From Candidatus Methylomirabilis sp. (GTDB lineage: Bacteria; Methylomirabilota; Methylomirabilia; Methylomirabilales; Methylomirabilaceae), in assembly GCF_028716865.1 (NCBI RefSeq), contig NZ_JAQUOY010000003.1:1-64000 (forward strand): a stretch of 64,000 nt of DNA. Direction: 5' to 3'. The position numbers and the translations under genes are program-made. Shown piece after piece: positions 21,834 to 58,909 of this stretch. Under the pieces are notes generated by a model. That model was not told the DNA's origin, made no database searches, and saw nothing but the letters and a program-made list of their open reading frames with translations. Position 1 is the first letter of the stretch; each line of letters opens with the position of its first letter.

Positions 21834-21842
21834 GAGTTAGAG

Positions 21843-22940: not shown

Positions 22941-23009
22941 CTGCCGTCCTCCACAGAGGGACCCCCTTTCCCCTTGTGCAACACACAGCTTACTAAGCTC
23001 CCCCTATCC

Positions 23010-23038: not shown

Positions 23039-23047
23039 TCCGTTTCA

Positions 23048-26000: not shown

Positions 26001-26422
26001 CGGCTTGCGCGCCAGACACAACGGCGCTGCCGCGTCAGAATAACCACCACGAACTGGTCCAGACAGGCGTCGAGCTGATCGTGAAAGAGGAAAAGTCCGT
26101 CGGCGGCCAGTTGGGCCGGCCGTCGGGCGCGCGCTTCCGCACGTACGATCGGCTCAAGCATTACGCCGAGCAGGTCAAGGGCACGCTGTTTGAGTCGCAG
26201 GAACTCCATAAGGCCATCGATGACATCTACCGCTACCCCCTGCGTCAATCCGCCGTGGATACACTCAACCGCCAACTGCGCAGCGGCATTTCCGATGAAG
26301 CCCTCGCCCAATTGGTCATCGCCTTGCGCGACGAAGGACGCCTGTGCCAGATTCACGAGGAAGAGCAGGCGCAGGATCCGCGCATCATCTGTTCGATGGG
26401 TCTGACGGTTCCCCCAAACTGA
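23048..26422 (+). CDS. PLD-nuclease / SNF2-type helicase fusion
   Basis: A 1124-residue two-part protein. Residues 1-220 form a phospholipase-D-like domain with HAK (139-141) and GSSNLTFAGL (159-168), the HxK...N pattern of PLD-type nucleases; the Asp of a full HKD motif is not seen. From about 250 there is an SF2/SNF2 motor: Walker A DVVGLGKT (280-287), motif II DESH (352-355), motif III LLSATPYN, and motif VI VQRAGRVDRIGQ. Such fusions act as translocases or nucleases in restriction-like defence. A methyltransferase gene starts 9 nt after the stop, so the pair should form one restriction-modification-like unit. Start fits a leaderless mRNA. Confidence 0.88.
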   Translation: MPRIFDNIEQSLLPALQQTIEVADRADFCVGYFNLRGWKQLDSYIEQWSGGEGHCCRLLVGMHRPPQDTLREAMSIVKRDGAIDNQTALRLKKTLAQEFREQLALGIPTNEDEAGLRRLAAQIKAKKVVVKLFLKHPLHAKLYLLFRPDPINPTVGYLGSSNLTFAGLSQQGELNVDVLDHDACNKLAAWFEDRWNDHWCLDISDELARIIEESWARETPIPPYQIYVKMAYHLSQEARAGLSEFRIPRDFGQKLFEFQTAAVKIAAHHLNKRGGVLIGDVVGLGKTLMATALARIFEDDQYLETLIICPKNLVPMWEDYRAQYRLRAKVLSISRATRELPHLRRYRLLLIDESHNLRNREGKRYRAIQEYIQENESKCILLSATPYNKTYLDLSSQLRLFVQEDKDLGIRPERKLREVGETEFIRKHQCPVRSLAAFEKSEHADDWRELMRLYMVRRTRSFIQDNYAHTDPANGRKYLTFEDGSRSYFPKRLPKTVTFRIDETNLADQYARLYADNVVEAINALNLPRYGLGNYVSASPHRPPTQAEAKLLQDLSRAGKRLMGFCRTNLFKRLESSGQAFLQSIERHILRNFVYLHAIETGQPVPIGTQDSEMLDTRFSDEDSEGGLFDDDENGEGLLSPEAASLRTEAGFKSRAKEIYAEYAAQYRRRFKWLSPGLFVKTLENDLRGDAEALLKLLQACGEWNAGKDAKLDALLTLLTRKHPNEKVIVFTQFADTVRYLAGQLEARGIAKLSGVTGDSPDPTALAWCFSPDSNNKLTHIKPGEELRILVATDVLSEGQNLQDCAVVVNYDLPWAIIRLVQRAGRVDRIGQKAENILCYSFLPADGVERIIRLRARVRRRLRENAEVVGTDEAFFEDDRNDQTVLDLYNEKSGILDGDAETEVDLASYAYQIWKNAVTADSSLQKIIPELPPVVYSTRAHQPNETQPEGVLVYLRTAEGNDALAWIDKQGGGVTESQFAILQAAACAPDTTALPRQNNHHELVQTGVELIVKEEKSVGGQLGRPSGARFRTYDRLKHYAEQVKGTLFESQELHKAIDDIYRYPLRQSAVDTLNRQLRSGISDEALAQLVIALRDEGRLCQIHEEEQAQDPRIICSMGLTVPPN

Positions 26423-26431
26423 GCGCTGAGC

Positions 26432-29400
26432 ATGCCGCTCGACGTCACGCGTACTCGCCAGTATCTGAGCCGCTTCGATTTCAAGACGCTGTTCCTCGAA
26501 GAGTTGGGCTGGGACTCGCACACCGCCTCGGTTGATGCGGTCAGTGACGGCCAGACCTTTGCGCTGACCGCCATCGCTCAGAAGCGCGGCATGGTGGCCT
26601 TCATCTGCTCACCGAACGGGCCGTCCGGCATCCCCGAATATCCCACGCGGCGCAAGATCGAACGGCAGGTCGCAAAATCCGTCCAGGAACATCTCATCAT
26701 CTACACCGACCCTGCTCAGACCACGCAAATCTGGCAGTGGGTCAAACGCGAGGTCGGCAAGCCGACCGCCTGCCGGGAGCATACCTACCACCGCGCGCAG
26801 CCAGGCGATGCGCTCATTCAGAAGCTGCAAGTGATCGCGTTCAGCCTGGACGAAGAGGAGCGTCTGAGTCTGGTGGACGTCACCAGCCGGACGCGAACCG
26901 CGTTCGATGTCGAGCGCGTCACTAAACGCTTCTATGACGTCTTCCAGAAAGAGCACGCGGCCTTCCTGAAGTTCCTGAAGGGCATTCCCGACGAGGAACT
27001 CCAACGCTGGTACGTCTCCGTCATGCTCAACCGCTTGATGTTCGTCTACTTCATCCAGAAGAAGCACTTCCTGGATGGCAATCCGGACTATCTGCGTAGC
27101 AAGCTGGCGGAAAGCCTGGCACGGGGGAAAGACCGCTTTTATCGGGAGTTCTTGTGCCCGCTCTTCTTCGAGGGCTTCGCGAAGAAAGACTCTGAACGAT
27201 CGACAGCGACGAACCGGCTCCTAGGCAAGGTGCCGTACCTCAACGGCGGCCTGTTCCTGCGCCACCAGATCGAGGAGCAGCACGGCAAGGACATCCAGAT
27301 CGCCGATGCCGCCTTCGAGAAATTGTTCAGCTTCTTCGAGCAATACCACTGGCACCTGGACGAACGGCCTCTTCGTCGGGACGACGAAATCAATCCCGAT
27401 GTGCTGGGCTACATCTTTGAGAAGTACATCAACCAGAAGCAGATGGGTGCGTACTACACGAAGGAGGACATCACCGGCTACATCAGCCAGAACACCGTCG
27501 TCCCGTTTCTGTTCGATACCGCCAGACAGAAGTGCAAGATCGCCTTCGAAGGAGAGTCGTCCATCTGGCGGCTGTTGCAGGCTGATCCCGATCGCTACTT
27601 CTATGGGGCGGTGAAAAAGGGTGCCGAGTTACCATTACCTCCGGACATCGCGGCGGGGTTGAGCGATGTATTAAAGCGCACCGGGTGGAACAGGCCCGCG
27701 TCTGCCGGTTACGCCCTGCCCACGGAAATCTGGCGTGAGGTTGTGGCAAGGCGCACGCGGTACGAGGACGTCAAGGGCAAACTGGCCAACGGGGAGATCC
27801 GCGACATCAACGACCTCATCACCTACAACCTGGACATCCGACAGTTTGCGCAGGACGTGATCGAAAACTGTGAAGGCCCGGAACTACTCAGGGCCTTCTA
27901 TCACGCGATCGAGAAGGTCACGGTGCTGGATCCCACCTGCGGGTCAGGGGCCTTCCTCTTTGCGGCGCTCAATATCCTCGAACCCCTCTATGAGGCATGC
28001 TTGGATCGGATGGAGGTCTTTTTGGATGAATTGGAGCGATCCGGCGTGAAGCACCGGCCCGAGAAGTTCAGCGACTTCCGCAAACTCCTCGATCGCGTCG
28101 CGTCTCACCCGAACCCCCGCTACTTCATCCTGAAGTCCATCATTGTCAACAATCTCTATGGTGTGGACATCATGGAAGAGGCGGTGGAGATCTGCAAGCT
28201 CCGCCTGTTCCTCAAGCTCGTTGCGCAGATCGAGCGGGTCGAGCACATCGAGCCGCTGCCCGACATCGACTTCAACATCCGTGCAGGCAACACGCTCGTG
28301 GGCTACGCCAATCTGGAAGAGATCAAGAAGTCCATGGAGGGGGATTGGGTCAAGCTGCAGTCGTTGCCGGCCATTGAAGAGAACGCCGAGATCGCCGATC
28401 GGGCCTTCCAGCAGTTTCACGAGATGCAGACCGAACACGGTATGGAGGCCAAAGACTTCGCCGACGCCAAGTTGGAACTCTGGAGACGGCTGAAGGTGCT
28501 GGAGGATGAACTCAACCGCTACCTTGCCCAGGAATACGGCGTCCCTCCTCCCTCGGAGGGAGAGGGTCGGGGTGAGGGGAAAAGGAAGTCCCCTGCATAC
28601 GAGAAGTGGCTTGCTTCTCATAAGCCGTTCCACTGGTTCATCGAGTTCTACCGAATCATGAAAAGCGGCGGATTCGACGTGGTCATCGGCAACCCGCCAT
28701 ATGTGGAGTACCGATTGGTTAAGGACATATACAAGTTATCATCGGATCAATATAAATCAGAAAACGCAGGTAACTTGTATGCGTTCTGTATGGAAAGATC
28801 ATGTGTATTACTTGGCAAAACCGGTTGGTTTGGGATGATTGTGCCCGCAGCCGTTCTTGGTCTGGATGAGACGCTCTGTCTTCGTGACGTGCTTCTTAGA
28901 AAGTTCCCTATGAATTTTTGCAGCACATACGCTATCAGGCCTTCTAAATTGTTCGACGGAGTTGACCAGAGACTCTGTATTTATCTCGGCATGGACGGAA
29001 AAGAATGTGCTCCTATCGTCTGGACAACCAAGTATCGTCATTGGAATTCAGAAGAACGCCCTGCGCTCTTTGCAAGGCTTGAATATGTAAGAACGCTCAC
29101 TCATCACCGACTCAAGAGGATACCGCAGGTAGGAAGTCATGAGGCGGTCAGCATATTGGCCAAGCTAGAAGCCAGGAGCGAAAAAGTTGTCCTGAGCTAT
29201 TATTCCAATGGTCCTTCTGGGTACGATATGCACTATCACCGTAGCCCCAGATACTGGATCAGGGCAATGGACTTTGAGCAGTATTTCAAGAGTCCGACTA
29301 GAACCCGTTCTATTCATCACTTCCGTGACCTGCATTTTAAGGATAAGCGCGAAGCAAGGGTTGTCGGTGCTGCCTTGAATAGCTCGCTGTTCTTCTACTG

Positions 29401-29725
29401 GTTTGTGTCGGTGGGCAACGGACGGAACATCACGGGCACTGATGTCGAGCAATTCCCATTGGGTAATTTGAGCGAGGACATCGTCAACGAACTTCCCAGG
29501 CTATTCGACAAGCTCATGAAGGACTATAAGGTGCATTCCTTCATCAGAGTACGGCAAGACTGTGAATTTCAGGAGTTTCGCCCAAGCATGTCCAAACCAA
29601 TCATCGATGAGATCGACCGCGCGCTGGCGAAGCACTACGGCTTCACGGATGAGGAGCTGGACTTCATCATCAACTACGACATCAAGTACCGCATGGGTGG
29701 GAGCGACAATGACGGTGATGAATGA
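26432..29725 (+). CDS. Eco57I-type adenine DNA methyltransferase (type IIG-like)
   Basis: A 1097-residue class-I SAM-dependent N6-adenine methyltransferase. An N-terminal domain (about 1-130, with a degenerate endonuclease-like look) and a helical linker precede motif I LDPTCGSGAFLF (499-510) and the catalytic NPPY (754-757). The target-recognition region follows to about residue 1040. The bases coding for about 765-1040 are visibly AT-richer than the flanks, as expected of swapped recognition domains. A mini-repeat encodes PPSEGEGRGEGK near 704-717. Its partner is the upstream helicase; the reverse transcriptase follows 25 nt later. Confidence 0.88.
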   Translation: MPLDVTRTRQYLSRFDFKTLFLEELGWDSHTASVDAVSDGQTFALTAIAQKRGMVAFICSPNGPSGIPEYPTRRKIERQVAKSVQEHLIIYTDPAQTTQIWQWVKREVGKPTACREHTYHRAQPGDALIQKLQVIAFSLDEEERLSLVDVTSRTRTAFDVERVTKRFYDVFQKEHAAFLKFLKGIPDEELQRWYVSVMLNRLMFVYFIQKKHFLDGNPDYLRSKLAESLARGKDRFYREFLCPLFFEGFAKKDSERSTATNRLLGKVPYLNGGLFLRHQIEEQHGKDIQIADAAFEKLFSFFEQYHWHLDERPLRRDDEINPDVLGYIFEKYINQKQMGAYYTKEDITGYISQNTVVPFLFDTARQKCKIAFEGESSIWRLLQADPDRYFYGAVKKGAELPLPPDIAAGLSDVLKRTGWNRPASAGYALPTEIWREVVARRTRYEDVKGKLANGEIRDINDLITYNLDIRQFAQDVIENCEGPELLRAFYHAIEKVTVLDPTCGSGAFLFAALNILEPLYEACLDRMEVFLDELERSGVKHRPEKFSDFRKLLDRVASHPNPRYFILKSIIVNNLYGVDIMEEAVEICKLRLFLKLVAQIERVEHIEPLPDIDFNIRAGNTLVGYANLEEIKKSMEGDWVKLQSLPAIEENAEIADRAFQQFHEMQTEHGMEAKDFADAKLELWRRLKVLEDELNRYLAQEYGVPPPSEGEGRGEGKRKSPAYEKWLASHKPFHWFIEFYRIMKSGGFDVVIGNPPYVEYRLVKDIYKLSSDQYKSENAGNLYAFCMERSCVLLGKTGWFGMIVPAAVLGLDETLCLRDVLLRKFPMNFCSTYAIRPSKLFDGVDQRLCIYLGMDGKECAPIVWTTKYRHWNSEERPALFARLEYVRTLTHHRLKRIPQVGSHEAVSILAKLEARSEKVVLSYYSNGPSGYDMHYHRSPRYWIRAMDFEQYFKSPTRTRSIHHFRDLHFKDKREARVVGAALNSSLFFYWFVSVGNGRNITGTDVEQFPLGNLSEDIVNELPRLFDKLMKDYKVHSFIRVRQDCEFQEFRPSMSKPIIDEIDRALAKHYGFTDEELDFIINYDIKYRMGGSDNDGDE
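28544..28583 (+). repeat. Palindromic mini-repeat inserted in frame in the methyltransferase
   Basis: CCTCCCTCGGAGGGAGAGGG followed by TCGGGGTGAGGGG. The first part is an inverted repeat (CCTCCCTC/GAGGGAGAGG-like). This string is familiar from many bacterial genomes as a dispersed repeat. Here it adds about 12 Gly/Glu/Arg/Ser codons between motif I and NPPY, without breaking the frame. Confidence 0.6.
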
Positions 29726-29750
29726 GTTCACAGACCCGGAATGATGACCT

Positions 29751-31802
29751 ATGCCCATGCTTGATGACCTACATGCGGACGACAACCTTCACCGCGCATG
29801 GGGTTGGCTTCGCCGCAATTCTGACGCCTCGTACAAGCACTACTTCCGCGACCTCTACGCAATCTACGCGATCGCGGATATCCGATTATTGAGGCGACTA
29901 CAGGACCGTCTGCGGCGCGGCATCTACGAGCCGACCCGGGCCTGTAAGCTTTTCTTCCCCAAGCCATCCGGTATCCTCCGTCCGTATTCGCTCCTGACCA
30001 TCGAAGACCAAATCGTCTATCAGGCGGCCATCAATCTCGTCGCTGAGCGGCTTTTCCAAAAGGTCAAGCACCGCTACAACAAGGAAGTGTTCGGCCACCT
30101 CTATGCTGGCAAGACGAGCTCGTGGTTCTATCGAAAATGGAGTGACGGCTACAAGGCGTTTAATGATGCTGCCCGGGTGGCCTTCGTCGACGGCTTTCGA
30201 TTCGCGGCCAGTTTCGACTTTACGGCTTGTTACGACAGCTTGGATCATGGCGTCCTGCGGCACATGCTTCACAAAATTGGCTGCGACAAGGACTTCGCCG
30301 AGGTGTTAACGAAATGGCTCAGCGTCTGGACCGCTACGGACCACGGGATCTACCATAATCACGGCATCCCGCAGGGACCGCTCAGCTCCGGATTGCTATC
30401 TGAGGTGGTTCTTCGCCACTTTGACGACCGCCGCAAGTTCGAGGGCAAGGTCCGCTACTTCCGCTACGTGGATGACATTCGCTTGTTCGCAAAGTCCGAG
30501 GGCGACCTCCGGCGGTTGCTGGTACGGCTAGATATCCTGAGCAAGGACATCGGGCTCTTTCCACAGTCCAACAAGATCAGCATTCACGAGGTCAAGGACA
30601 TTGAGGCCGAGGTCAAGTCCATCAGCAACCCGACGGAAAGCTCGATTCGCAGCAGAATCGTCAACCAGGATCGCCTGCGCAAGCGGCTAGTCAGCCTGAC
30701 GCCGCACTTTCGCGTGAAGGATTCGACTCGGTTCAAGTATCTGCTGGCTCATGCGCAGCCCAATGCGAAGCTCACCGCCCGTCTTTGGCGAATATTCGAG
30801 AATCAACCCGAGTTTTACGTGCAGTTCGCTCGCTATCTGGAGCGCTACCGCCGACTGCCACGCCGCACGGCTCAACGTCTCCTAAAGGAAATCGAACGGC
30901 AGGAGCTGTATCCGGCCATACGTGCCGCTCTGCTCGCTGCTGCCGATGGTCGCCTCGCGGACCAACATGCGCGATCCTTGGCAACACTTGTCAAAAGTAC
31001 AATTTGGAAGCCTAGAGACATGCCGGCTGATCTGTTCGCGGCTGCGGGACGGATGCTCCTCACCGGTGGGCGGCTGACGCTCGCCCAATTGCGGTACGCA
31101 TGCCAGCGAGAGAAACCTTGGTGGGGACGCGCGCAGATCGTGCTTGCTTTGAACCCGACGAATGTCACTCATGAGGCGCTGGCGGGAATTCTCAATGACG
31201 CCTTGCGTGACAAACATAGCGACGTGGCGCTCGCCGCGGCTTTTGGCGCAGCGATGAACGGCGTCGTCCTGAAGTCGCCCCGGAAAACGATCGAGCCAAC
31301 GGCAGCAGAGGTGCTGAAGGAACTGGGCGTAATTGCTCGTACGCCGCCGCCTCCGTGTGGAATCGATTCGAGCCTGCGGAGAATGCTCGGAACGGTTCCA
31401 GCCATCAAGTGGAAGACCGTCTTCGGCGGGAACTATCGACATGTGGAGAAGCATATCGTTCATGCGCGAGCACTCGCCGACACGAACGTCAGCGCGTGGG
31501 TGAACGCCATGGACGTATTCAACGACTGGTTGCTGGTCGCACTCTACGCGCACGACGGATCGCTCGGCAGCTATACGTCGGGACAAATCGGATCAATCTT
31601 ACATAGCAAACGACTGAAGAAAACGTACCCCGCGCTTCACGCGCTGGTTGTAGGTATACACAAAAAACGGCTGGAAAGTCTCTTATCGCACGCCAAGACC
31701 AAGAGCAGCGGCAGGCCCACAAGGCCCATCAAGTGGGGGTATCTCAAGACCGGGAAAGCGCTACTTCGAAAGGCTCTTGAGGAGCAGGCGAAAAAGTGGT
31801 GA
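29751..31802 (+). CDS. Reverse transcriptase of the unknown-group/Abi type with helical C-terminus
   Basis: A 683-residue RNA-directed DNA polymerase. Fingers: FPKPSGILRPYSLLTIEDQI (69-88). Palm: first catalytic Asp in ASFDFTACYDSLDH (153-166), GIPQGPLSSG (205-214), and the catalytic YVDD (239-242). There is no maturase X/HNH region or retron-style motif, and no msr/msd or intron ends are visible. From about 310 the chain is alpha-helical with HEAT-like repeats to about 540, then a separate end, the plan of AbiA/AbiK- and UG-class defence RTs. It lies 25 nt after the methyltransferase stop, suggesting a single transcript. I cannot place it in a numbered DRT class by eye. Confidence 0.85.
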   Translation: MPMLDDLHADDNLHRAWGWLRRNSDASYKHYFRDLYAIYAIADIRLLRRLQDRLRRGIYEPTRACKLFFPKPSGILRPYSLLTIEDQIVYQAAINLVAERLFQKVKHRYNKEVFGHLYAGKTSSWFYRKWSDGYKAFNDAARVAFVDGFRFAASFDFTACYDSLDHGVLRHMLHKIGCDKDFAEVLTKWLSVWTATDHGIYHNHGIPQGPLSSGLLSEVVLRHFDDRRKFEGKVRYFRYVDDIRLFAKSEGDLRRLLVRLDILSKDIGLFPQSNKISIHEVKDIEAEVKSISNPTESSIRSRIVNQDRLRKRLVSLTPHFRVKDSTRFKYLLAHAQPNAKLTARLWRIFENQPEFYVQFARYLERYRRLPRRTAQRLLKEIERQELYPAIRAALLAAADGRLADQHARSLATLVKSTIWKPRDMPADLFAAAGRMLLTGGRLTLAQLRYACQREKPWWGRAQIVLALNPTNVTHEALAGILNDALRDKHSDVALAAAFGAAMNGVVLKSPRKTIEPTAAEVLKELGVIARTPPPPCGIDSSLRRMLGTVPAIKWKTVFGGNYRHVEKHIVHARALADTNVSAWVNAMDVFNDWLLVALYAHDGSLGSYTSGQIGSILHSKRLKKTYPALHALVVGIHKKRLESLLSHAKTKSSGRPTRPIKWGYLKTGKALLRKALEEQAKKW

Positions 31803-31848
31803 CGACGGTCGGACCAGTAGGGGGCAAGCGGGGCAAGGGGGCTCAATG

Positions 31849-32005
31849 GGAATTGTATAAACCTCCCGCTGAAGGATGAATGTCCCCCATGTCTATACAA
31901 ATCCTGATGCCGTGCATGCTCGCAACTTGAAGAAGAATGGGGAGTTATGATTCATATAGATCGGAGTCAATCCGAATTGGTTACAGAATATGGTTATACA
32001 ATTCC
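31849..32005. repeat. Three copies of TATACAA[T/A]TCC upstream of higBA
   Basis: GGAATTGTATA (31849-31859, inverted), TATACAAATCC (31894-31904) and TATACAATTCC (31995-32005). The outer two extend to GGAATTGTATAAACC and GGTTATACAATTCC, near-perfect inverted repeats 157 bp end to end. They may be operator sites or the ends of a small insertion. No gene is seen between 31803 and 32080. Confidence 0.5.
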
Positions 32006-32028
32006 TGCATCATGGCTCCTATCATGGA

Positions 32029-32057
32029 GGTAAATTGTATTTACCCAATAGGTAAAT
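32029..32057 (+). promoter_or_regulatory. Three-half-site operator GGTAAAT before higBA
   Basis: GGTAAAT (32029-32035), ATTTACC (32039-32045) and GGTAAAT (32051-32057) are exact half-sites in alternating orientation, with 3- and 5-nt gaps. A TATATT -10 (32057-32062) with TTGTAT 16 nt upstream (32035-32040) overlaps the array, so binding would block transcription. The natural ligand is the XRE-domain antitoxin encoded by the second gene. Confidence 0.7.
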
Positions 32058-32080
32058 ATATTTATTGACATGGAAACAGA

Positions 32081-32416
32081 ATGGAGATAACCTTTAGCTC
32101 TAGGAAATTGCAAAAAGTCTGCAACTCAGAAAAAGAGATGCGGGCCAGGTTCGGTAAGCCATTGGCCGAAAGGCTCCAGCAGCGGTTGGCCGAACTCAAG
32201 GCAGCGGACACGCTTGAAGATATCCGGCGATTGCCCTCAGCTCGCTGCCACGAATTATCACAGAACCGAAAAGGGCAACTTGCTGTCGATGTGGTGCATC
32301 CCAAACGACTCATCTTCGAGCCGGACCACAATCCGGTGCCTCACAAAACGGATGGTGGTCTTGATTGGTCTCATGTCACGAAAATTCGAGTGATCGAAAT
32401 CATTGACTACCATTGA
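32081..32416 (+). CDS. higB: HigB/RelE-family toxin
   Basis: A 111-residue RelE-fold protein: EITFSSRKLQKVCNSEKEM at the start, LEDIRRLPSARCHELSQNRK in the middle and HVTKIRVIEIIDYH at the end, the usual HigB pattern of a ribosome-dependent mRNA endonuclease. It is slightly longer than typical RelE. It overlaps the antitoxin gene by 14 nt (toxin first, as in higBA). Transcription is expected to be repressed from the GGTAAAT operator. Confidence 0.82.
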   Translation: MEITFSSRKLQKVCNSEKEMRARFGKPLAERLQQRLAELKAADTLEDIRRLPSARCHELSQNRKGQLAVDVVHPKRLIFEPDHNPVPHKTDGGLDWSHVTKIRVIEIIDYH

Positions 32417-33515
32417 AGAACTCATGACCAGAAAATCTACAGCAAAACGATACGTTTTTGAGCCAGAGTACGCTGTACCTCCGGGCCGAACGTTACAGGA
32501 GACCATTGATGCTCTGGGGATGGGGCAACGGGATCTGGCCACACGGGCTGGACTCTCGGCCAAACATATCAATCAGATTATCCGAGGAGTCGCCACCATT
32601 TCTCATGAAACGGCGATTCGGCTGGAACAGGTTACCGGTGTGTCGGCGCGGATGTGGAACAACCTTGAGGTCAACTACCGAGAACAATTAGCCAAGTTGG
32701 AAGAAAAAAAGCGTCTTGAACATGACTTGGCTTGGTTAAAGAAGATTCCCACTGGCGAATTGATCAAGCGCGGGAAGATTGAAAAACAGACAGACCGGGT
32801 GCTTATGCTGAAAGCGGTATTAGGCTTTTTCGGGGTTGCCGATGTGGAGGCGTGGAACAAAATTTGGTTGAGCCCTACCGTTGCCTACCGCAAGTCGGCG
32901 GTATTTCAGGGAAAACCCGAGGCCATGGCAACATGGTTGCGATTAGGGGAACTGGCGGCAAGAGCGGTCCCGTGTGCCCCGTTCGACAAGTCAAGATTCC
33001 GCTCCGTTCTTCACGAGATACGAGCCATCACGCTAGAAAAACCGGAGGTTTCTGTACCCAAAATGAAGGGGCTCTGCGCAGACGCTGGAGTTGCCATGGT
33101 GTTGGTCCCGGAGATTAGGAACGCCCCCGTAAGCGGGGCGACACGATGGCTGACTCCAGAAAAGGCCATGCTCCAACTGAGCCTTCGTTATAAGACCAAT
33201 GACCAATTCTGGTTTACCTTCTTTCATGAGGCAGGGCACATACTGTGTGGTGGGAAAAAGGAGGTCTTCATTGACCTTAATCATGCGACAGGAAAAGGGG
33301 AAATGGAGGCCGATAGCTTTGCCGCGGATCATCTGATCCCACCTCGTAGTGCAAGCGAATTGAACGGGTTGAAGAGTACGTGGGCTATTGAAGCCTTCGC
33401 CGAGTCCATTGGTATTGCACCGGGCATCGTGGTAGGACGGCTCCAACATGAAGGGATGATTGGTCACGACCAGTTCAATGGGCTGAAGATGCGGTATCAG
33501 TGGGCGCAGCAATAG
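32403..33515 (+). CDS. HigA-type XRE antitoxin fused to an ImmA/IrrE peptidase domain
   Basis: A 370-residue protein. An XRE helix-turn-helix lies at about 32-85 (MGQRDLATRAGLSAKHINQI). The C-terminal half is an ImmA/IrrE-like metallopeptidase with the zinc motif HEAGH (275-279) and a downstream ADSFAADHLIP segment with the third ligand. Such two-domain antitoxins bind their operator and may be cleaved, or cleave a repressor, in response to DNA damage. An ATG at 32424 is an alternative start that would avoid most of the overlap with higB. Confidence 0.88.
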   Translation: MTTIEELMTRKSTAKRYVFEPEYAVPPGRTLQETIDALGMGQRDLATRAGLSAKHINQIIRGVATISHETAIRLEQVTGVSARMWNNLEVNYREQLAKLEEKKRLEHDLAWLKKIPTGELIKRGKIEKQTDRVLMLKAVLGFFGVADVEAWNKIWLSPTVAYRKSAVFQGKPEAMATWLRLGELAARAVPCAPFDKSRFRSVLHEIRAITLEKPEVSVPKMKGLCADAGVAMVLVPEIRNAPVSGATRWLTPEKAMLQLSLRYKTNDQFWFTFFHEAGHILCGGKKEVFIDLNHATGKGEMEADSFAADHLIPPRSASELNGLKSTWAIEAFAESIGIAPGIVVGRLQHEGMIGHDQFNGLKMRYQWAQQ

Positions 33516-33545
33516 TGTCTTAGTGGACAAGGCCACAGGGGGCTA

Positions 33546-34181
33546 TTGACCTTGCTTGCCACTTCTTGGATTCATCCGGACGATTCTGCCTACCCTCCCG
33601 TTCTTCCCAGCCTTCTTGGCAACGATGCACCATCTCGCGTCACCGTGCTGGGTGATCTCAACATTCTGAATCAGAAATCGCTGGCGCTATTCTGCTCGGT
33701 GAAATGCCCCGGCAATCTCATCTTGCAAACCTACGACCTTGCGCAGCGCTTGCGGCAATCCGGCGTTACCGTGATCGGCGGGTTTCATTCACCGATGGAG
33801 CGCGAGTGCCTGACGATCCTACTGCGCGGCACGCAGCCGGTCATTGCGTGTCCGGCCCGAAGCCTTTCCGGCATGCGAATCCCGGCCGTGTACAAGCAGC
33901 CGCTCGAACAAGGCAGGATGCTGCTCCTGTCGCCCTTTGCCGATACAGTACGCCGTGCGACTGTAGAAACGGCCATGCTCCGGAACCGCGTTGTTGCCGC
34001 AGTCGCCGGCGCGATCTTCGTGGCCCATGCGGAACTCCAGAGCAAAACCGAGCAGTTCTGCCGCGAGGTGCTTGCATGGCGGAAGCCGCTCTATACATTG
34101 GCCGACAACGCGAACGGCCACCTGCTCACGATGGGCGCTCAACCGTTACGTCTTAATGATCTGTCTCTGTTGCTCAGATGA
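33546..34181 (+). CDS. Short stand-alone DprA/SLOG-fold protein
   Basis: A 211-residue protein starting at TTG, 3 nt after CAGGGGG. It follows the DprA/Smf Rossmann fold: YPPVLPSLLGNDAPSRVTVLGDL, then VTVIGGFHSPMERECLTILL and a late ALDNANGHLL-like segment (TLADNANGHLLTMG). It lacks the SAM and DML1 domains of full DprA (about 360 residues). The usual GSR nucleotide motif is not conserved. Small SLOG proteins in defence islands can bind nucleotides or DNA, and this one follows a HigBA unit by 30 nt. A competence role is unlikely from context. Confidence 0.7.
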   Translation: MTLLATSWIHPDDSAYPPVLPSLLGNDAPSRVTVLGDLNILNQKSLALFCSVKCPGNLILQTYDLAQRLRQSGVTVIGGFHSPMERECLTILLRGTQPVIACPARSLSGMRIPAVYKQPLEQGRMLLLSPFADTVRRATVETAMLRNRVVAAVAGAIFVAHAELQSKTEQFCREVLAWRKPLYTLADNANGHLLTMGAQPLRLNDLSLLLR

Positions 34182-42405: not shown

Positions 42406-42906
42406 ATGTCGATGCGTGACATCATGGTTGGTGAGTCATTGGCGGGTGACGGTAATGAGGTAGCGCACATTGATCTGATGATCGGTCCCAAGAACGGTCC
42501 GGTCGGCACCGTCTTCGCACAGCGTCTTGCTCAGCAGAGTGCGGGCCACAGCGCCCTTCTGGCGGTCGTAGCGCCGAATTTGCTGGCGAAGCCTGCGACG
42601 GTTATGTTCAACAAGGTGACAATCAAGGGAGCGAAGCAGGCGGTTCAGATGTTCGGCCCAGCCCAGGCGGCCGTGGCGAAGGCCGTAGTCGATAGCGTCG
42701 CAGAGGGCGTGATCCCCGCGAAGGATGCTGAAGATCTCGCGGTTGTTGTCGGCGTCTTCATCCACTGGGAGGCCAATGACAATAAGAAGATCTTCGACTA
42801 CAACTATCAGGCGACTAAGGAGTCGATCGCGCGGGCATTGGCCGAGCAGCCCTCGATGAGCGAGATCTTGGCGCAGAAGGATAAGGTCAAGCATCCATTC
42901 GCCTAG
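42406..42906 (+). CDS. fae: Formaldehyde-activating enzyme
   Basis: A 166-residue enzyme that speeds condensation of formaldehyde with H4MPT to methylene-H4MPT. The catalytic His lies in [17 protein letters not shown]; the ends of the fold ([20 protein letters not shown]) are conserved. GGAGAAGGAGGA precedes the ATG. It is the first gene of the C1 operon, separated from mtdB by a terminator-like hairpin, so it can be made in excess of the rest, as expected of a formaldehyde trap. Confidence 0.96.
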
Positions 42907-43937: not shown

Positions 43938-44276
43938 GTGGCTGAGACACAGTTTATATTGATCACCGGCCGATCGACCAAGCAGGGAAGTTCAGCCCAT
44001 CTCGGTAAGGACGCCCAGGAGTACCGAGACGAGGTCTCGACCTTGCAGATGAACCTCAAGGATATCGAAGCGATAGGATTACAGGATGGGGTTCAAGCGC
44101 GGGTCACATCGAACTACGGTTCGATCGTGGTCAAATTGAAAAAAACCGATATCCCGCAGGGAATCGTCTTTATTCCTTATGGAGAATTGAGTAACGCCCT
44201 GATCGGTCCGGACACCCAGGCTACAGGGATGCCGGATTCAAAGGGGATCACGGTGGAGGTTGGACGCCATGAGTGA
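43938..44276 (+). CDS. fwdD: FwdD-like molybdopterin-dinucleotide-binding subunit
   Basis: A 112-residue protein from GTG (AGGAGTGAGGATCAG ahead). It has the small beta-barrel of FwdD/FmdD and of the C-terminal domain of molybdopterin oxidoreductases: ETQFILITGRSTKQGS, LQMNLKDIEAIGLQDG and IVFIPYGELSNALIGPDTQA. In archaea this subunit, with FwdB, holds the tungsten or molybdenum pterin. The fhc operons of classic methylotrophs usually lack it. It overlaps fhcB by 8 nt, so the two should be made together. Confidence 0.85.
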   Translation: MAETQFILITGRSTKQGSSAHLGKDAQEYRDEVSTLQMNLKDIEAIGLQDGVQARVTSNYGSIVVKLKKTDIPQGIVFIPYGELSNALIGPDTQATGMPDSKGITVEVGRHE

Positions 44277-45624
44277 GAGCGTTGCCGTGAAAGAACCGGC
44301 TGCGAAAGAACCGTATGTGATGACGGGCGTCGTCTGCCCCTTCTGCGGCGTGACGTGTGACGATCTGGAGGTCAAGGTCGAGGACGGAAAGATCACGGAG
44401 GTCAAAAACGCCTGTGTCCTGGGTAAAGCCACCTTTCTCCATCATCTGGAGGGGTTGTCGACCCCGAGGATTCATGGAAAACCGGCGACCGTTGATGAGT
44501 GCATCGATGCGGCGGCAGAGATTCTCGCGAAGGCCAAATACCCCCTCATCTATGGACTCGACTCGACCGAGCTGGGCGCGCAGCGGGCGTCGATCGAACT
44601 GGCCGATCTGATCGGCGCGAATATCGACCACACCTCATCGGTCTGCCACGCGCCGAGCTATCAGGCGGTGATGACCGTCGGCATCCCGACCTGCACGTCG
44701 GGAGAGACGAAGAACCGGGCCGATCTGGTGATCTTCTGGGGATGTAATCCGGCCGAGGCGCATCCACGGCATGCCACCCGGTACTCGGTGACCGTGAAGG
44801 GGATGTTCATCCCCAAGGGGAAGAAGGACCGAACGGTCATTCAGGTTGATGTCAGGCCGACGCCGACCACACGAATTGCCGACGCCTTCATCCAGATGAA
44901 ACCGAACTCCGACTACGAGGTTATCTCTGCCCTTAGGGCTCTTGTGAAGGGCCACGAACTGGACCAGACTGAGGTTGGAGGCATAGCAGTTGATGAATTG
45001 AAAGCCTTGGTAGAAAAGATGAAGAGCTGTAAGTTCGGGATCGTCTACTGGGGTATGGGCCTAACCCAGACCAGGGGTAAATATATGAATCTCGTCGCGC
45101 TGCTTAAACTCGCTCAAGATCTTAACGAGTTTACAAAATTTTCGTGCGCAGCGATGCGGGGTCATGGCAATGTGGTGGGAATGGCTCAGGTGCTGACATG
45201 GCAAACCGGTTTTCCCTTCCACGTCAACATGAGTCGCGGCTATCCTCGATTCAACCCAGGGGAATTTTCTGTCGTCGATATGTTGGCCCGTAAAGAGATC
45301 GATGCCGCATTGGTGATTGCCGGCGACGCTATCGGAAATTTTCCAGGGAGCATGGCGGAGCATCTGAAATCGATTCCGCTGATTGCCATCGATCCCAAGG
45401 AGAGCGATACGACCAGAGTAGCTGACATCGTGATTCCGTCAGCGCAGGGCGCCATTGCCTCCGGAGGAATGGCGTACAGGATGGACCATATCCCCCTGAT
45501 GTTCAAAAAGGTGGTTGAGTCACCCTACCCATCGGATCGGGAGATCCTCGACCGTATCATCGCGAAGATCAAGGCGATGAAGAGTCGCGGCAATGGCGCT
45601 CCCGCCCCGGCCGGTAGAGGCTGA
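44269..45624 (+). CDS. fhcB: Formylmethanofuran dehydrogenase/formyltransferase-hydrolase subunit B
   Basis: A 451-residue FwdB/FhcB-type subunit. GGAGG lies 9 nt before the ATG. The N-terminus has CPFCGVTCDD with a later Cys in VKNACVLGKA, the arrangement of a [4Fe-4S] site; SSVCHAPSYQ carries the Cys that in archaeal FwdB binds the metal; NPAEAHPRHATRY and GTAYRM-like AYRMDHIP follow. These residues suggest a real molybdopterin/tungstopterin enzyme. It would act on formylmethanofuran to give CO2 and electrons. In methylotrophs studied biochemically, FhcB is reported not to work as a metal enzyme, so this copy is of interest. Confidence 0.92.
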   Translation: MSESVAVKEPAAKEPYVMTGVVCPFCGVTCDDLEVKVEDGKITEVKNACVLGKATFLHHLEGLSTPRIHGKPATVDECIDAAAEILAKAKYPLIYGLDSTELGAQRASIELADLIGANIDHTSSVCHAPSYQAVMTVGIPTCTSGETKNRADLVIFWGCNPAEAHPRHATRYSVTVKGMFIPKGKKDRTVIQVDVRPTPTTRIADAFIQMKPNSDYEVISALRALVKGHELDQTEVGGIAVDELKALVEKMKSCKFGIVYWGMGLTQTRGKYMNLVALLKLAQDLNEFTKFSCAAMRGHGNVVGMAQVLTWQTGFPFHVNMSRGYPRFNPGEFSVVDMLARKEIDAALVIAGDAIGNFPGSMAEHLKSIPLIAIDPKESDTTRVADIVIPSAQGAIASGGMAYRMDHIPLMFKKVVESPYPSDREILDRIIAKIKAMKSRGNGAPAPAGRG

Positions 45625-45635
45625 GGATAATCGAC

Positions 45636-47282
45636 ATGGGACGCTCATTACGAATTGTCGGCGGTGAGGTCTACGACCCGGCCAACGGGATCGATGGGAC
45701 TATTAAAGAGATCTGTGTTGAGGATGGAAAGATCGTAGAGTCCTGTACCGGGCCCGCTGAGGTCATTGACGCCAGCAATCTGGTCATTATGCCTGGTGGT
45801 GTCGATATTCATACCCACATCGGCAGTCCTGCGGTCAACGCGGCTCGCGGGTTCAGACCTGAGGATCACCAGCGGATGCATTTCCACTCAAAGCCTGCTG
45901 CCGGTATCAGGTCAGGCGTAGGCTCTACGGTCCCCTCCACCTTTGCGACCGGCTACCTGTATGCTCAGATGGGCTATACTACGGTGATGGAAGGCGCAAA
46001 CGCGCCCATCGGCGTTCGGCATACCCATGAGGAGCTGATCGATATCCCGATCGTGGATAAGGGGCTGTATATCGAATTGGGGAGTAACGAGTTTATCCTG
46101 AAGTTCATCAAGGCCGGCGAGATGGAGAAGGTCAAGCGATATGTCGCCTGGCTTCTCAAGTCGTTGAAGGCATATGGCGTGAAGCTGGTCAACCCCGGCG
46201 GTGTAGAGGCATGGAAGTACGGGAAGGATGTGAAAAACCTGGACGATAAGGTCCACTACTTCGATGTCACGCCGCGCCAGATCCTGAAGGCGCTCGCCTG
46301 GGCCAACGAAAGCCTCGGGTTGCCCCACTCGATCCACCTGCACGCCAATAGCCTGGGCACACCCAACAACTACCTGACGACCTTGGACACGATGCGGACG
46401 CTCGAGGGCTCAAGGCTCCATGTGGCGCACGCTCAGTTTCACAGTTACGGCGGAGAGAACTGGGGCGGTTTCTGCTCAAAGGCGGCCGAGATTGCGGAGT
46501 ACATCAACACTCATCCCAATATCACGACGGACATCGGCCAGATTGTCTTCGGCGACGCCACCACCATCACGGCGGACGGCCCGTGGCAGTACCGGCTGTA
46601 CAAGCTCAGCAAGAATAAATGGTACAACCAGGACGTCGAGATCGAGACGGGGTGCGGTATCGTCCCGTACACCTATCGAGAAAATAACTATGTGAACGCC
46701 CTGCAATGGGCTATCGGACTGGAGCTCTTCCTCCTGATTCGTGATCCGTGGCGGGTATTCCTCTCTACCGACCATCCCAACGGCGGTCCCTTCTACCTCT
46801 ATCCATGGATCATCAAGCTGCTCATGGACAAACCGTTCCGGGATGAGATGCTGAAGCGTGTTCATAAGCGTGTGATGCCCGAGACCATCCTGTCGTCCCT
46901 TGACCGTGAGTATACCTTGAATGAGATCGCCATCATCTCCAGGGCCGGTCCAGCGAGAGCATTGGGGCTCACGCATAAGGGTCACCTGGGGGTTGGAGCG
47001 GATGCCGACATTACGATCTATTCCAAAGATAGCGATAAGGAACAGATGTTCGAGCATCCCGTCTATGTCATCAAGGACGGCGAGACGGTCCTTCGAGATG
47101 GTGAGATCGTACACAGTCCCGCTGGGAAGACTCTGTTTGTCATCCCGCCTGACGTCGGCGAGATGGACCCAACCTTTAAGACCGAATTCGAAAACTACTA
47201 CACGATTCGGTATCAGAATTTCCCAATCGATATCGAGGACATCCCGAATCGAGAGGCGATCCCGGTGGGAGCGCCTCGATGA
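45636..47282 (+). CDS. fhcA: Formyltransferase/hydrolase subunit A (FwdA-type amidohydrolase)
   Basis: A 548-residue zinc amidohydrolase. The metal ligands are in GVDIHTHIGSPA, HLHANSLG, HAQFHSYG and the catalytic Asp in LSTDHPNGG; the bridging Lys is likely in KLVNPGG. It hydrolyses formyl-methanofuran (here probably methylofuran) to formate. Length matches FhcA/FwdA. It is 11 nt after fhcB. Confidence 0.95.
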   Translation: MGRSLRIVGGEVYDPANGIDGTIKEICVEDGKIVESCTGPAEVIDASNLVIMPGGVDIHTHIGSPAVNAARGFRPEDHQRMHFHSKPAAGIRSGVGSTVPSTFATGYLYAQMGYTTVMEGANAPIGVRHTHEELIDIPIVDKGLYIELGSNEFILKFIKAGEMEKVKRYVAWLLKSLKAYGVKLVNPGGVEAWKYGKDVKNLDDKVHYFDVTPRQILKALAWANESLGLPHSIHLHANSLGTPNNYLTTLDTMRTLEGSRLHVAHAQFHSYGGENWGGFCSKAAEIAEYINTHPNITTDIGQIVFGDATTITADGPWQYRLYKLSKNKWYNQDVEIETGCGIVPYTYRENNYVNALQWAIGLELFLLIRDPWRVFLSTDHPNGGPFYLYPWIIKLLMDKPFRDEMLKRVHKRVMPETILSSLDREYTLNEIAIISRAGPARALGLTHKGHLGVGADADITIYSKDSDKEQMFEHPVYVIKDGETVLRDGEIVHSPAGKTLFVIPPDVGEMDPTFKTEFENYYTIRYQNFPIDIEDIPNREAIPVGAPR

Positions 47283-47309: not shown

Positions 47310-48224
47310 ATGGAGATCAACGGCGTTTACATCGATGAGACGTACGCAGAGGCATTCGGTGCCTATGCCGGCCGGGTGCTGATTACCGCGTGCAGCAAGG
47401 CGTGGGCCCAGGAGGCGGCACGAAGCATGACGGGCTTCGGGACCTCGGTGATCGGCTGTGGTTGCGAGGTTGCCATTGAGGGGATCGAGCCGGCGGACAC
47501 GCCGGACGACCGGCCTGGCGTGAGTGTGTTGCTGTTTGCCATGTCAAAAAAGGCGGTTCAGGAGCAGCTCATCAACCGGATCGGCCAGTGCGTGATGACC
47601 GCTCCCTCCTCGGCCTGCTACAACGCCCTGGAGGCGGAAGATCGCCTGTCGATAGGGGGCAAGCTCAAGTTCTTTGGCGACGGATTTCAGATCAGTAAGC
47701 GGTTTGACCCACGGATAACCGGAAATGGGAGCAGTCCGCGACGCTTCTGGCGGATTCCTGTGATGGACGGCGAGTTCATCGTTGAAGACCGTTTCGGGGT
47801 GAAAAAGGGAGTAGCCGGAGGCAACTTCTTACTGCTGGGGCGCGAACTGCCTGGGACCCTGCAGGCTGCGGAGCGGGCGATCGAGGCGATGCGAAAGGTG
47901 CCGGGTGTCATCATGCCGTTTCCTGGTGGCGTTGTGAGATCCGGCAGCAAAGTCGGTTCGCGCTACAAGTTCCTGAATGCCTCAAGCAACACAGCCTTCT
48001 GTCCATCACTACGGCGAGCGGTCAAGAGCGAACTGCCGGAAGGGGTTGGGGCGGTCCTTGAGATCGTCATCGATGGCCTGATGCCGGAGGCGGTTGGAGA
48101 GGCCATGCGGGTCGGCATTCGAGCCGCGTGCGGTCCGGGTATCGTGAAGATCTCCGCCGGAAACTACGGTGGAAAGTTGGGAAAACATCACTTTCACCTC
48201 CATCAGCTATTGGCTGAGGGCTGA
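47310..48224 (+). CDS. fhcD: Formylmethanofuran-H4MPT formyltransferase
   Basis: A 304-residue Ftr/FhcD enzyme that moves the formyl group from H4MPT to methanofuran in oxidative direction. EINGVYIDETYAEAF begins the chain; GFGTSVIGCGCEVAIEG, PDDRPGVSVLLFAMSKK and AAERAIEAMRKVPGVIMPFP are family blocks. Length is right. It lies 27 nt after fhcA and before fhcC. Confidence 0.95.
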   Translation: MEINGVYIDETYAEAFGAYAGRVLITACSKAWAQEAARSMTGFGTSVIGCGCEVAIEGIEPADTPDDRPGVSVLLFAMSKKAVQEQLINRIGQCVMTAPSSACYNALEAEDRLSIGGKLKFFGDGFQISKRFDPRITGNGSSPRRFWRIPVMDGEFIVEDRFGVKKGVAGGNFLLLGRELPGTLQAAERAIEAMRKVPGVIMPFPGGVVRSGSKVGSRYKFLNASSNTAFCPSLRRAVKSELPEGVGAVLEIVIDGLMPEAVGEAMRVGIRAACGPGIVKISAGNYGGKLGKHHFHLHQLLAEG

Positions 48225-50958: not shown

Positions 50959-51870
50959 GTGAATCCCCTATCCCCTATCCCCTATCCCCTAAACCCTGAT
51001 AAGGTATCCCTTGTTGCTCAGTTCGCCTGTCTCCTGGAGGTGAGCGCCGACAAGCCTGGAAACGTCACTCCGTTTGCCGACTTCGCCGATACTCGCTACA
51101 CCGACTTTCTGGCCAGTTCCATCATCCTGGGGCTGACGTTGCGGAAGGCCGCAACGGTCGCCACCGGCTCGCTGGTCCTCAACGCGGTTCGAGAAACCAA
51201 ACGGCTGGTCGGCCGGAACACCAACCTTGGGATCGCGCTCCTGTTCGCTCCACTGACAAAAGCGGCCGTGCGTAGAGGGCACCGCCCGCTTCGGTCACGC
51301 CTTCGCAGCATACTGACTTCCCTGACGCCGATCGACGGCCAAAGGGTCTACGAGGCGATTCGCCTCGCGGCCCCAGGCGGGCTTGGGGACGCGGACCAGT
51401 TCGATGTCAGCGCGACGCATGGCAGGGTTCCGCTCCTTGAAGTGATGCGCGCCGCGGCCGATCGCGATTCGATTGCGCGCGAGTATGTCACCGACTTCGA
51501 GATCACCTTTACCATTGGTGCTCCGGCGCTTGAGCGCTATCTCCAGGAGTCGGACGATCAGGAGCCAGCAGTCATTCAGACCTATCTGACACTTCTCTCT
51601 CGCGTGCCGGATTCCCTCATTGCGCGCAAATGCGGGACACGCGAGGCCGGCAGAATCTCACGGGAAGCGGGAAAGATTCTGGCTGTCGGTGGAGCGTTCA
51701 CGCAGGAGGGGCGACGGAAGCTTCAGCAGTGGGACCGAGCCCTGCGGCGAGATGGCAACCGTCTCAATCCGGGAACAACCGCGGATCTGACCGCCTCGGC
51801 TCTCTTTGTTGTGATGCTGGAAAAGGGGATCGAGTTCGTACTGGGATCGGGAGCTGCGCAGGCTCCTTAG
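50959..51870 (+). CDS. CitG/MdcB-like triphosphoribosyl-dephospho-CoA synthase family protein
   Basis: A 303-residue all-alpha protein of the CitG family: LEVSADKPGNVTPFADF, TNLGIALLFAPL and AAPGGLGDADQFDV keep the nucleotide-binding residues. Related genes are a constant part of H4MPT clusters (function there unproven), so a kinase- or transferase-like step on a pterin or ribose intermediate is more likely than citrate-lyase maturation. GTG start with AGGGG 9 nt ahead. The first 11 codons are made from a CCCCTAT tandem repeat. Confidence 0.8.
   Translation: MNPLSPIPYPLNPDKVSLVAQFACLLEVSADKPGNVTPFADFADTRYTDFLASSIILGLTLRKAATVATGSLVLNAVRETKRLVGRNTNLGIALLFAPLTKAAVRRGHRPLRSRLRSILTSLTPIDGQRVYEAIRLAAPGGLGDADQFDVSATHGRVPLLEVMRAAADRDSIAREYVTDFEITFTIGAPALERYLQESDDQEPAVIQTYLTLLSRVPDSLIARKCGTREAGRISREAGKILAVGGAFTQEGRRKLQQWDRALRRDGNRLNPGTTADLTASALFVVMLEKGIEFVLGSGAAQAP
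50964..50990 (+). repeat. CCCCTAT tandem repeat at a gene start
   Basis: Three and a half head-to-tail copies of a 7-mer (CCCCTAT) followed by AAACCC. It encodes the Pro/Leu/Ser/Ile stretch PLSPIPYPL right after the GTG start of the CitG-like gene. Length variation by one unit (7 nt) would shift the frame. Confidence 0.7.
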
Positions 51871-57874: not shown

Positions 57875-58909
57875 TTAGTGAATCTCGGCCCCTCGATTGG
57901 AGGCCTTTGCTAAAAAGAGGATCGCCTCAACTGTCCCTTTCATGACCTGCATAAGACGATGCTTTATGTGATCGGCCTGATCCTGATCCGCAGCCAGCCC
58001 ATAGACCGCCGGTCCCCAGGAGCTTTGCCCTACCCCTAACGCTCCTGCCCGTGACATCGCTTTGACTAGCGCCGCCCCTTGTGTGGTGGCAAAGGTTCCG
58101 CCCTGGACGGGTCTGAACCAGTTTCCGACAATTCGCTGAATGCTCGTGAGCGACCCACCGAAGGCGACAGGGTCTTGCTCGAGGATGGCCGGGAGCATCT
58201 GCATGAGCAAGAGGCGACTGAGGCGTCCTGCAGCGCTGGCGGGGCGGCCGGCGAGTCTGTGGAATGCCTTGGTCTCTGCGGTTCCAGCGAGCCCACGGTC
58301 AGCATAAGGGATCGCCACTACGAAAGTCCAGTTCTCCGGAAAGGGGTAGCGAACGATTATGGGAGGGACAGGATCTAGGCGTCGGGTTTGGGATTTGGGA
58401 TTTGGGGTTTGGGATTCTGAACCCGGCACTTGACACGCGGAACTTGGAACAACTTTCGCCGTGACGTTCATCCGCCGTCCCGCGTCTACGATAAAACCGC
58501 CCTGCTCAAAGGCGGCAATTCCGATCCCTGAACGACGACCTCGACCCATGACGGCTGCCAGTTCTCGTATATTGGCATCGATGGAGAACAGGCGAGCCAG
58601 CGCGGACGCGACGCTCAGGGCCAATTGGGTTCCGGAGCCCAGGCCGGCATGGGCAGGGATCGTGGTTGTAACGGAGATGCGGACTCCCTGGTTCAGCCGG
58701 TAATAGCGGAGGAACCGGCGCGCGAGCGTAACGACTCGGCTCCGCTCTCGCCCTACGACTTCAAGGCGGTCCGCCGGCGTGGCTTCGAGGATGACTGCGG
58801 GCTCGTCGATCGCCAGCCCGATGCTTCCGAACATCCGACCCGATGAGCCGTCCGGGTCGATGAAACCGAAGTGAAGCCTGGCAGGGGCCTTGACCGTCAC
58901 CCTCATCAC
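57875..58909 (-). CDS. mptG: Beta-ribofuranosylaminobenzene 5'-phosphate synthase
   Basis: A 344-residue GHMP-kinase-fold enzyme that joins PRPP and p-aminobenzoate, the first committed step to the H4MPT side chain. KAPARLHFGFIDPDGSSGR, IPAHAGLGSGTQLALSVA and GRGRRSGIGIAAFEQGG are conserved. A run near residues 155-178 (VPGSESQTPNPKSQTRRL) comes from an inserted intergenic-type repeat, yet the frame is kept. The start overlaps the DUF447 stop by 4 nt. It is the last gene of a four-gene leftward cofactor unit. Confidence 0.92.
   Translation of the reverse strand: MMRVTVKAPARLHFGFIDPDGSSGRMFGSIGLAIDEPAVILEATPADRLEVVGRERSRVVTLARRFLRYYRLNQGVRISVTTTIPAHAGLGSGTQLALSVASALARLFSIDANIRELAAVMGRGRRSGIGIAAFEQGGFIVDAGRRMNVTAKVVPSSACQVPGSESQTPNPKSQTRRLDPVPPIIVRYPFPENWTFVVAIPYADRGLAGTAETKAFHRLAGRPASAAGRLSRLLLMQMLPAILEQDPVAFGGSLTSIQRIVGNWFRPVQGGTFATTQGAALVKAMSRAGALGVGQSSWGPAVYGLAADQDQADHIKHRLMQVMKGTVEAILFLAKASNRGAEIH
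58383..58450 (-). repeat. Dispersed-type repeat inserted in mptG
   Basis: GGGTTTGGGATTTGGGATTT on the plus strand is a (T3G3A)-like tandem run; CACTTGACACGCGGAACTTGGAAC follows. Such strings are usual between genes, not in them. Here it encodes about 22 Ser/Pro/Gln/Thr-rich residues in a surface-loop position of mptG. Confidence 0.6.

What the first reader, a model, noticed from the sequence alone, without database searches (positions are those of the whole stretch)
43938..45624. FwdD-like subunit and metal-ligand cysteines in a bacterial fhc operon
FhcB keeps CPFCGVTC and SSVCH, the sites that bind the Fe-S cluster and metal in archaeal FwdB, and an fwdD-type gene is fused to it by overlap. 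Typical methylotroph complexes are purely hydrolytic and yield formate. This organism may oxidise formyl-methanofuran directly to CO2 with recovery of electrons, or have kept an ancestral form.
Basis: partly seen in the sequence, partly recalled or inferred. Interest (0 to 1): 0.7.

Follow-up and report, generated by a model that had tools for sequence, protein, structure and literature searches.

The report
Metal-type formylmethanofuran dehydrogenase in a bacterium
A methane-oxidising NC10 bacterium carries the genes of an archaeal-type, metal-dependent enzyme that should oxidise the last one-carbon intermediate straight to CO2 and capture its electrons, and elsewhere in its genome it holds a selenium-containing second version beside tungsten-uptake genes.

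Summary
Window 43938-45624 holds overlapping fwdD and fwdB genes in a fae-mtdB-fwdD-fwdB-fwdA-fhcD-fwdC-mch operon of a Methylomirabilis-like (NC10) genome. The "FhcB" is an FwdB: it matches archaeal FwdB at E 1e-105 to 1e-133 but Methylorubrum FhcB only at 1e-15. It keeps the metal-ligand Cys, His119, Arg288, His290 and 82 of 88 conserved FwdB columns. The CPFCGVTC motif is not diagnostic: 13 of 13 ligand-less FhcB examined keep it. The Cys/Sec ligand and fwdD are diagnostic (fwdD upstream of 79 of 79 ligand-bearing copies with room, 0 of 13 ligand-less).

The strongest evidence lies outside the window: a second fwdD-fwdB pair with TGA exactly at the ligand codon, an fdhF-like SECIS, purifying selection past the TGA, full Sec machinery, and tungstate/molybdate transporter neighbours. 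Each genome checked has only one fwdA, so both B/D modules probably share one core.

Best reading: a Mo/W-dependent formylmethanofuran dehydrogenase working oxidatively; electron acceptor unknown, activity not shown. fwdD in NC10, and the M. oxyfera cluster as a "formyl/formate oxidation system", are published. The selenium/tungsten twin was not found described in the papers searched.

The parts
42406..42906 (+). fae, formaldehyde-activating enzyme
   Evidence: Pfam Fae 238 bits
43037..43924 (+). mtdB-like methylene-H4MPT dehydrogenase
   Evidence: Pfam Mpt_N 104 bits
43938..44276 (+). fwdD, pterin-binding subunit
   Evidence: Molydop_binding 62 bits; FwdD chains of solved structures
44269..45624 (+). 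fwdB, Mo/W catalytic subunit (Cys form)
   Evidence: TIGR03129 547 bits; archaeal FwdB E down to 2e-133
44335..44415 (+). 4Fe-4S cysteines C23, C26, C30, C49
   Evidence: alignment with 5T5I and 8RJA
44644..44649 (+). metal-ligand Cys126 and His127 (Cys118-His119 of M. wolfei)
45636..47282 (+). fwdA, amidohydrolase subunit
   Evidence: TIGR03121 745 bits; archaeal FwdA 1e-159
47310..48224 (+). fhcD, formyltransferase
   Evidence: FTR and FTR_C; TIGR03119
48258..49067 (+). fwdC
   Evidence: TIGR03122 276 bits
49081..50028 (+). mch, methenyl-H4MPT cyclohydrolase
   Evidence: Pfam MCH 407 bits
50071..50949 (+). RimK-like ATP-grasp gene, likely coenzyme biosynthesis
50959..51870 (+). CitG-like gene of the H4MPT cluster
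57875..58909 (-). beta-RFAP synthase family gene (H4MPT biosynthesis)
   Evidence: TIGR00144 211 bits
59466..60809 (-). dihydropteroate synthase-like gene, likely H4MPT biosynthesis
   Evidence: TIGR00284 221 bits, below its cut-off

Best explanation
The operon encodes a bacterial formylmethanofuran dehydrogenase (FwdABCD plus the formyltransferase FhcD). FhcD moves the formyl group from formyl-H4MPT to the furan coenzyme; FwdA hydrolyses it to formate, which passes by an internal tunnel to a Mo/W-bis-PGD site held between FwdB and FwdD. There it is oxidised to CO2, and the electrons leave through the FwdB 4Fe-4S cluster to an unidentified carrier (probably a ferredoxin or an NAD-linked diaphorase). 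A second FwdD-FwdB pair with selenocysteine as metal ligand, encoded beside tungstate and molybdate uptake genes, probably docks on the same FwdA/C core as an alternative catalytic module. Shown: genes, residues, in-frame TGA, hairpin, selection, Sec machinery, single fwdA. Inferred: metal, activity, direction, tunnel, electron acceptor, module exchange.
For: Archaeal-type match and residue conservation of FwdB, FwdD and FwdA. fwdD precedes 79 of 79 ligand-bearing copies with room and 0 of 13 ligand-less ones. Sec paralogue: TGA at the ligand codon in six genomes, close alignment to the E. coli fdhF SECIS, hairpin z -2.25, dN/dS about 0.1 past the TGA, selA/selB/tRNA-Sec/selD present, tupA/modAB/tupBC-like/moaC neighbours and, in the relative G025, yedF. 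One fwdA per genome. fae and mtdB in the operon fit the oxidative direction. Damo_0456-60 of M. oxyfera is reported as its most highly transcribed formyl/formate system (PMC6094997).
Against: No biochemical data. No FwdF/FwdG-like or ferredoxin gene in or beside the operon. The NC10 Cys form has some unusual residues near the site (G120A, Q127M, L136S). The genome also has an NAD-type formate dehydrogenase, so hydrolysis plus a separate FDH would suffice for growth. No bacterial Fwd complex with metal was found characterised in the papers read.
Confidence: 0.85

Rival explanations
1. The complex is hydrolytic like Methylorubrum FhcABCD, with a vestigial or structural metal site; formate is released and oxidised by the separate NAD-type formate dehydrogenase.
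For: fhcD is inside the operon as in fhc operons; no electron-transfer subunit is encoded; NAD-type FDH genes exist in the genome; ligand-less FhcB can keep the Fe-S motif.
Against: Ligand, second-sphere residues and fwdD are all kept under purifying selection across the genus. A Sec paralogue with SECIS and tungstate-uptake neighbours has no use in a hydrolase.
Confidence: 0.08
2. It is a true formylmethanofuran dehydrogenase but runs in the CO2-reducing direction to supply formyl groups for biosynthesis.
For: The archaeal enzyme is reversible, and CO2-reducing and CO2-releasing forms have almost identical sites.
Against: The operon starts with fae and mtdB of formaldehyde oxidation; the species fix CO2 by the Calvin cycle (PMC6094997); no low-potential electron donor subunit is encoded.
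Confidence: 0.05
3. The Sec fwdB on the other contig is a pseudogene with a premature stop, so it says nothing about the window complex.
For: It is annotated as two ORFs by a mechanical ORF finder.
Against: Same TGA in six genomes, dN/dS about 0.1 downstream, SECIS hairpin, selA-D present.
Confidence: 0.02

Closest known systems
Archaeal formylmethanofuran dehydrogenase FwdABCDFG (Methanothermobacter wolfei, PDB 5T5I; ethanotroph, 8RJA)
   Same: FwdB ligand Cys, His119, Arg288, His290, 4Fe-4S cysteines, FwdD, archaeal-type FwdA and FwdC
   Different: No FwdF, FwdG or FwdI electron-transfer subunit is encoded in the operon; the formyltransferase gene lies inside the operon between fwdA and fwdC
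Methylorubrum extorquens formyltransferase/hydrolase complex FhcABCD (PDB 6S6Y)
   Same: A, D and C subunits and companion pathway genes of the bacterial H4MPT pathway
   Different: Its FhcB is a 361-residue chain matching the window protein only from residue 69, so without the N-terminal Fe-S region; no FwdD and no ligand Cys
Ca. Methylomirabilis oxyfera Damo_0456-60 formyl/formate oxidation system (PMC6094997)
   Same: Very probably the orthologous operon; 96% identical FwdB in the 2,752,854-base genome G025
   Different: Locus tags could not be checked here; the Sec twin is not mentioned in the passages read
Planctomycete P2 selenocysteine fmdB and Methanopyrus Cys/Sec isoenzymes (PMC4807772)
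   Same: Paired Cys and Sec forms of FwdB in one genome
   Different: In NC10 the Sec form travels only with fwdD, next to tungstate uptake genes, and must share the single FwdA

Membership tests
Formylmethanofuran dehydrogenase (Fwd/Fmd) | FwdB with Cys or Sec metal ligand followed by His | tested here: met
   SSVCH in the window copy, SSVUH in the paralogue
Formylmethanofuran dehydrogenase (Fwd/Fmd) | Further conserved FwdB residues (Arg288, His290 and other columns) | tested here: met
   82 of 88 columns at least 95% conserved are kept; ligand-less FhcB keep 47% on average
Formylmethanofuran dehydrogenase (Fwd/Fmd) | FwdD pterin-binding subunit | tested here: met
   43938-44276; Molydop_binding over cut-off and FwdD chains; it falls below the cut-off of the narrow NCBIfam exception model NF042908
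Formylmethanofuran dehydrogenase (Fwd/Fmd) | N-terminal 4Fe-4S site in FwdB | tested here: met
   C23, C26, C30, C49; not discriminating
Formylmethanofuran dehydrogenase (Fwd/Fmd) | FwdA amidohydrolase subunit and FwdC | tested here: met
   TIGR03121 and TIGR03122 over cut-off
Formylmethanofuran dehydrogenase (Fwd/Fmd) | FwdF/FwdG or another dedicated electron-transfer subunit (varies between archaea) | tested here: inconclusive
   No ORF with a CxxCxxCxxxC motif in the window or at the Sec locus; a related ferredoxin lies elsewhere in the genome. Archaeal complexes differ in this part, e.g. FwdI in place of FwdF
Formylmethanofuran dehydrogenase (Fwd/Fmd) | Bound Mo or W with bis-PGD, and dehydrogenase activity | not testable with these tools
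   needs purified protein
Hydrolytic Fhc complex | FhcB without metal ligand and no FwdD | tested here: not met
   ligand and FwdD both present
Bacterial selenoprotein (the paralogue on contig 13) | In-frame TGA with downstream SECIS hairpin and SelA/B/C/D in the genome | tested here: met

The most novel reading that the evidence does not exclude
NC10 methanotrophs run a bacterial formylmethanofuran dehydrogenase with two interchangeable catalytic modules, one Cys and one Sec/tungsten, that plug into one FwdA/C/FhcD core according to metal and selenium supply and recover low-potential electrons that hydrolytic methylotrophs give up at this step.
Probability: 0.55. Interest if true: 0.68.

Novelty: new member of a known kind. 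Interest (0 to 1): 0.5.

Why it matters
The characterised bacterial H4MPT pathway ends in hydrolysis to formate. Here the bacterial complex keeps the whole archaeal redox site and even a selenocysteine version, so the final step of methane oxidation in NC10 bacteria should yield CO2 and low-potential electrons directly, which changes their energy budget and trace-metal needs (Mo, W, Se). The residue-plus-fwdD rule found here sorts the two enzyme types from sequence alone and shows fwdD in many bacterial phyla, including Gammaproteobacteria and Planctomycetota, where a 2016 paper reported it absent.

Tried and rejected
The Fe-S motif as a diagnostic: rejected, because all 13 ligand-less FhcB examined keep it. 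Rfam for the SECIS: no hit, so a direct comparison with E. coli fdhF was made. Folding of a distant Sec fwdB (Desulfosporosinus L105) gave no significant hairpin with the stretch chosen. Synonymous-site conservation over the SECIS was only weakly low (35th of 277 windows) and is not used as proof. Search for an operon-linked electron carrier in the window and at the Sec locus: none found. The 2019 PNAS Fhc structure paper is not held, so Methylorubrum FhcB was read through PDB alignments only. AlphaFold was not run: close solved structures made residue mapping sufficient. Whether the 'two unclassified bacteria' with Sec fmdB in PMC4807772 include Methylomirabilis could not be checked.

Full report
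Organism. The window lies in a 2.54 Mb genome. The nearest named contigs are Candidatus Methylomirabilis / Methylomirabilota (94-95% identical FwdB). The same operon is in the single-contig genome G025 of 2,752,854 bases (96% identical FwdB), a size that fits Ca. Methylomirabilis oxyfera (own knowledge).

Observation. fae (42406), mtdB-like (43037), fwdD (43938, GTG), fwdB (44269), fwdA (45636), fhcD (47310), fwdC (48258), mch (49081), a RimK-like gene and a CitG-like gene follow one another on the plus strand. fwdD and fwdB overlap by 8 bases.

What the B subunit is. By phmmer against solved chains, window FwdB matches archaeal FwdB at E 2e-133 (8rja_B), 8e-125 (5t5i_B) and 3e-114 (9sfi_Q, whose ligand position is printed X), but Methylorubrum FhcB (6s6y_B) only at 1.5e-15 and only over residues 69-401. 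FwdA shows the same trend (about 1e-159 against 2e-106). [quoted passage not shown] extorquens (PMC11656701). NCBIfam TIGR03129 and TIGR03121 are well over cut-off.

Diagnostic residues. An alignment of FwdB/FhcB from 80 genome-contig loci and others was read at M. wolfei positions C9, C12, C16, C35, C118, H119, R288 and H290. Every catalytic-type copy, the window included, has all eight, with C or U at 118. All 13 ligand-less FhcB (12 second copies in Proteobacteria and one in Azoarcus) keep the four Fe-S cysteines but lose C118, H119, R288 and H290. fwdD was found just upstream of 79 of the 80 catalytic-type copies (the exception starts at a contig edge) and of none of the 13 ligand-less ones. 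Of 88 columns at least 95% conserved in catalytic FwdB outside NC10, the window keeps 82, the Sec paralogue 80, and the ligand-less FhcB 47% on average.

The selenocysteine twin. A domain search found a second fwdD-fwdB pair on contig 13. Its fwdB is open except for one TGA at exactly the ligand codon: IDHTSSV-TGA-HGPG. The same TGA occurs in six genus genomes. The bases after it, TGACACGGACCAGGTCTGCAGGGTCTGCAGACAATCGGTC, align with E. coli fdhF, TGACACGGCCCATCGGTTGCAGGTCTGCACCAATCGGTC, apart from short indels and a few bases; the stem folds with z -2.25. Downstream of the TGA dN/dS is about 0.1 (for example 0.038/0.38 between G000 and G025), so the gene is translated beyond it. The genome has tRNA-Sec (67 bits, cut-off 47), SelB, SelA 15 kb away on the same contig and SelD with its own in-frame TGA. 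In-frame TGA at the same ligand position was also found in FwdB of Nitrospinota, an Acidobacteria MAG and Desulfosporosinus lacus.

Neighbourhood of the twin. tupA (TupA model E 8e-65, below its strict cut-off) stands directly upstream; modA, modB, a modC-like ATPase, tupB/tupC-like genes and moaC follow. The association with tupA holds in G025 and G026. In G025 the pair is followed by a NuoF/FdhB-like gene, a Cys-type fdhA and yedF, a selenium-metabolism gene. Published Damo_1134-1138, described as a minor NAD(P)-dependent formate dehydrogenase (PMC6094997), may be this locus with the Sec fwdB counted as two fragments; that is an inference, as locus tags were not visible. Only one FwdA over cut-off exists in each of eight NC10 genomes, so the Sec pair must use the FwdA of the main operon or none.

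Evolution. In a maximum-likelihood tree the Sec and Cys forms of NC10 are sisters (100/99) and fall among FwdB, near the archaeal group, while the ligand-less FhcB form their own clade. Long branches make the deeper placement unsure.

Mechanism. In the archaeal enzyme FwdA hydrolyses formyl-MFR, formate diffuses through a tunnel to the metallopterin of B/D and is oxidised there; CO2-reducing and CO2-releasing complexes have nearly identical sites, so direction is set by the electron partner (PMC11493965). The same scheme is inferred here.

Electron acceptor. The operon has no ferredoxin-motif ORF. In 23 loci, nearly all gammaproteobacterial, a ferredoxin gene follows fwdC, which fits a redox complex; the window's genome has one related ferredoxin elsewhere, 46% identical. 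This is the largest gap in the mechanism.

Prior knowledge. fwdD in NC10 was noted by Chistoserdova (PMC5020050), who reported it absent from Planctomycetes and Proteobacteria; searches show it in both. Bacterial FwdB (149 representatives) is reported in PMC10100899. A Sec fmdB in a planctomycete, and the fmdDBAC order in M. oxyfera, are in PMC4807772. Damo_0456-60 is called the first and highest transcribed formyl/formate oxidation system. What was not found in the papers searched is the NC10 Sec/tungsten twin module, its link to metal uptake and the shared single core. The library holds only open papers, so this absence is weak evidence.

Verdict. Very probably a bacterial formylmethanofuran dehydrogenase. 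The class of gene is known; the evidence here makes the function directly testable and adds the selenium twin.

Noticed in passing
L005 about 2187 (G000 contig 13, 24.6-26.3 kb): Second fwdD-fwdB pair with in-frame TGA at the metal-ligand codon beside tungstate/molybdate transporter genes.
   Followed up: yes
window 19837-34181: Defence island, partly of lower GC: SNF2/PLD helicase (23048-26422), Type IIG restriction-methylase (26432-29725, 1070 bits), UG19-type reverse transcriptase (29751-31802, 556 bits), weaker hits at 32403-34181.
   Followed up: partly
L043, L044, L045 (genomes G008, G023, G010): A further FwdB-like protein in some NC10 relatives keeps most FwdB residues (75, 72 and 66 of 88) but has Phe-Tyr in place of the ligand Cys-His; no fwdD was found beside the copies in L132 (G008) and L134 (G023). 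Function unknown.
   Followed up: partly
L095, L097, L098, L108, L113, L121, L124, L125 and others: Proteobacteria carry a metal-type fwdD-B-A-fhcD-C set, a ferredoxin, and a ligand-less fhcB-fhcA set side by side, a natural pair for comparing the two enzyme types.
   Followed up: partly
L105, L127, L081, L093, L094: In-frame TGA at the FwdB ligand codon in Desulfosporosinus lacus, an Acidobacteria MAG and three Nitrospinota MAGs.
   Followed up: partly
L129 11.9-16.8 kb (G025): In the M. oxyfera-like genome an NAD-type formate dehydrogenase and yedF sit next to the Sec fwdDB pair; the published Damo_1134-1138 'formate dehydrogenase' may include the split Sec fwdB.
   Followed up: partly
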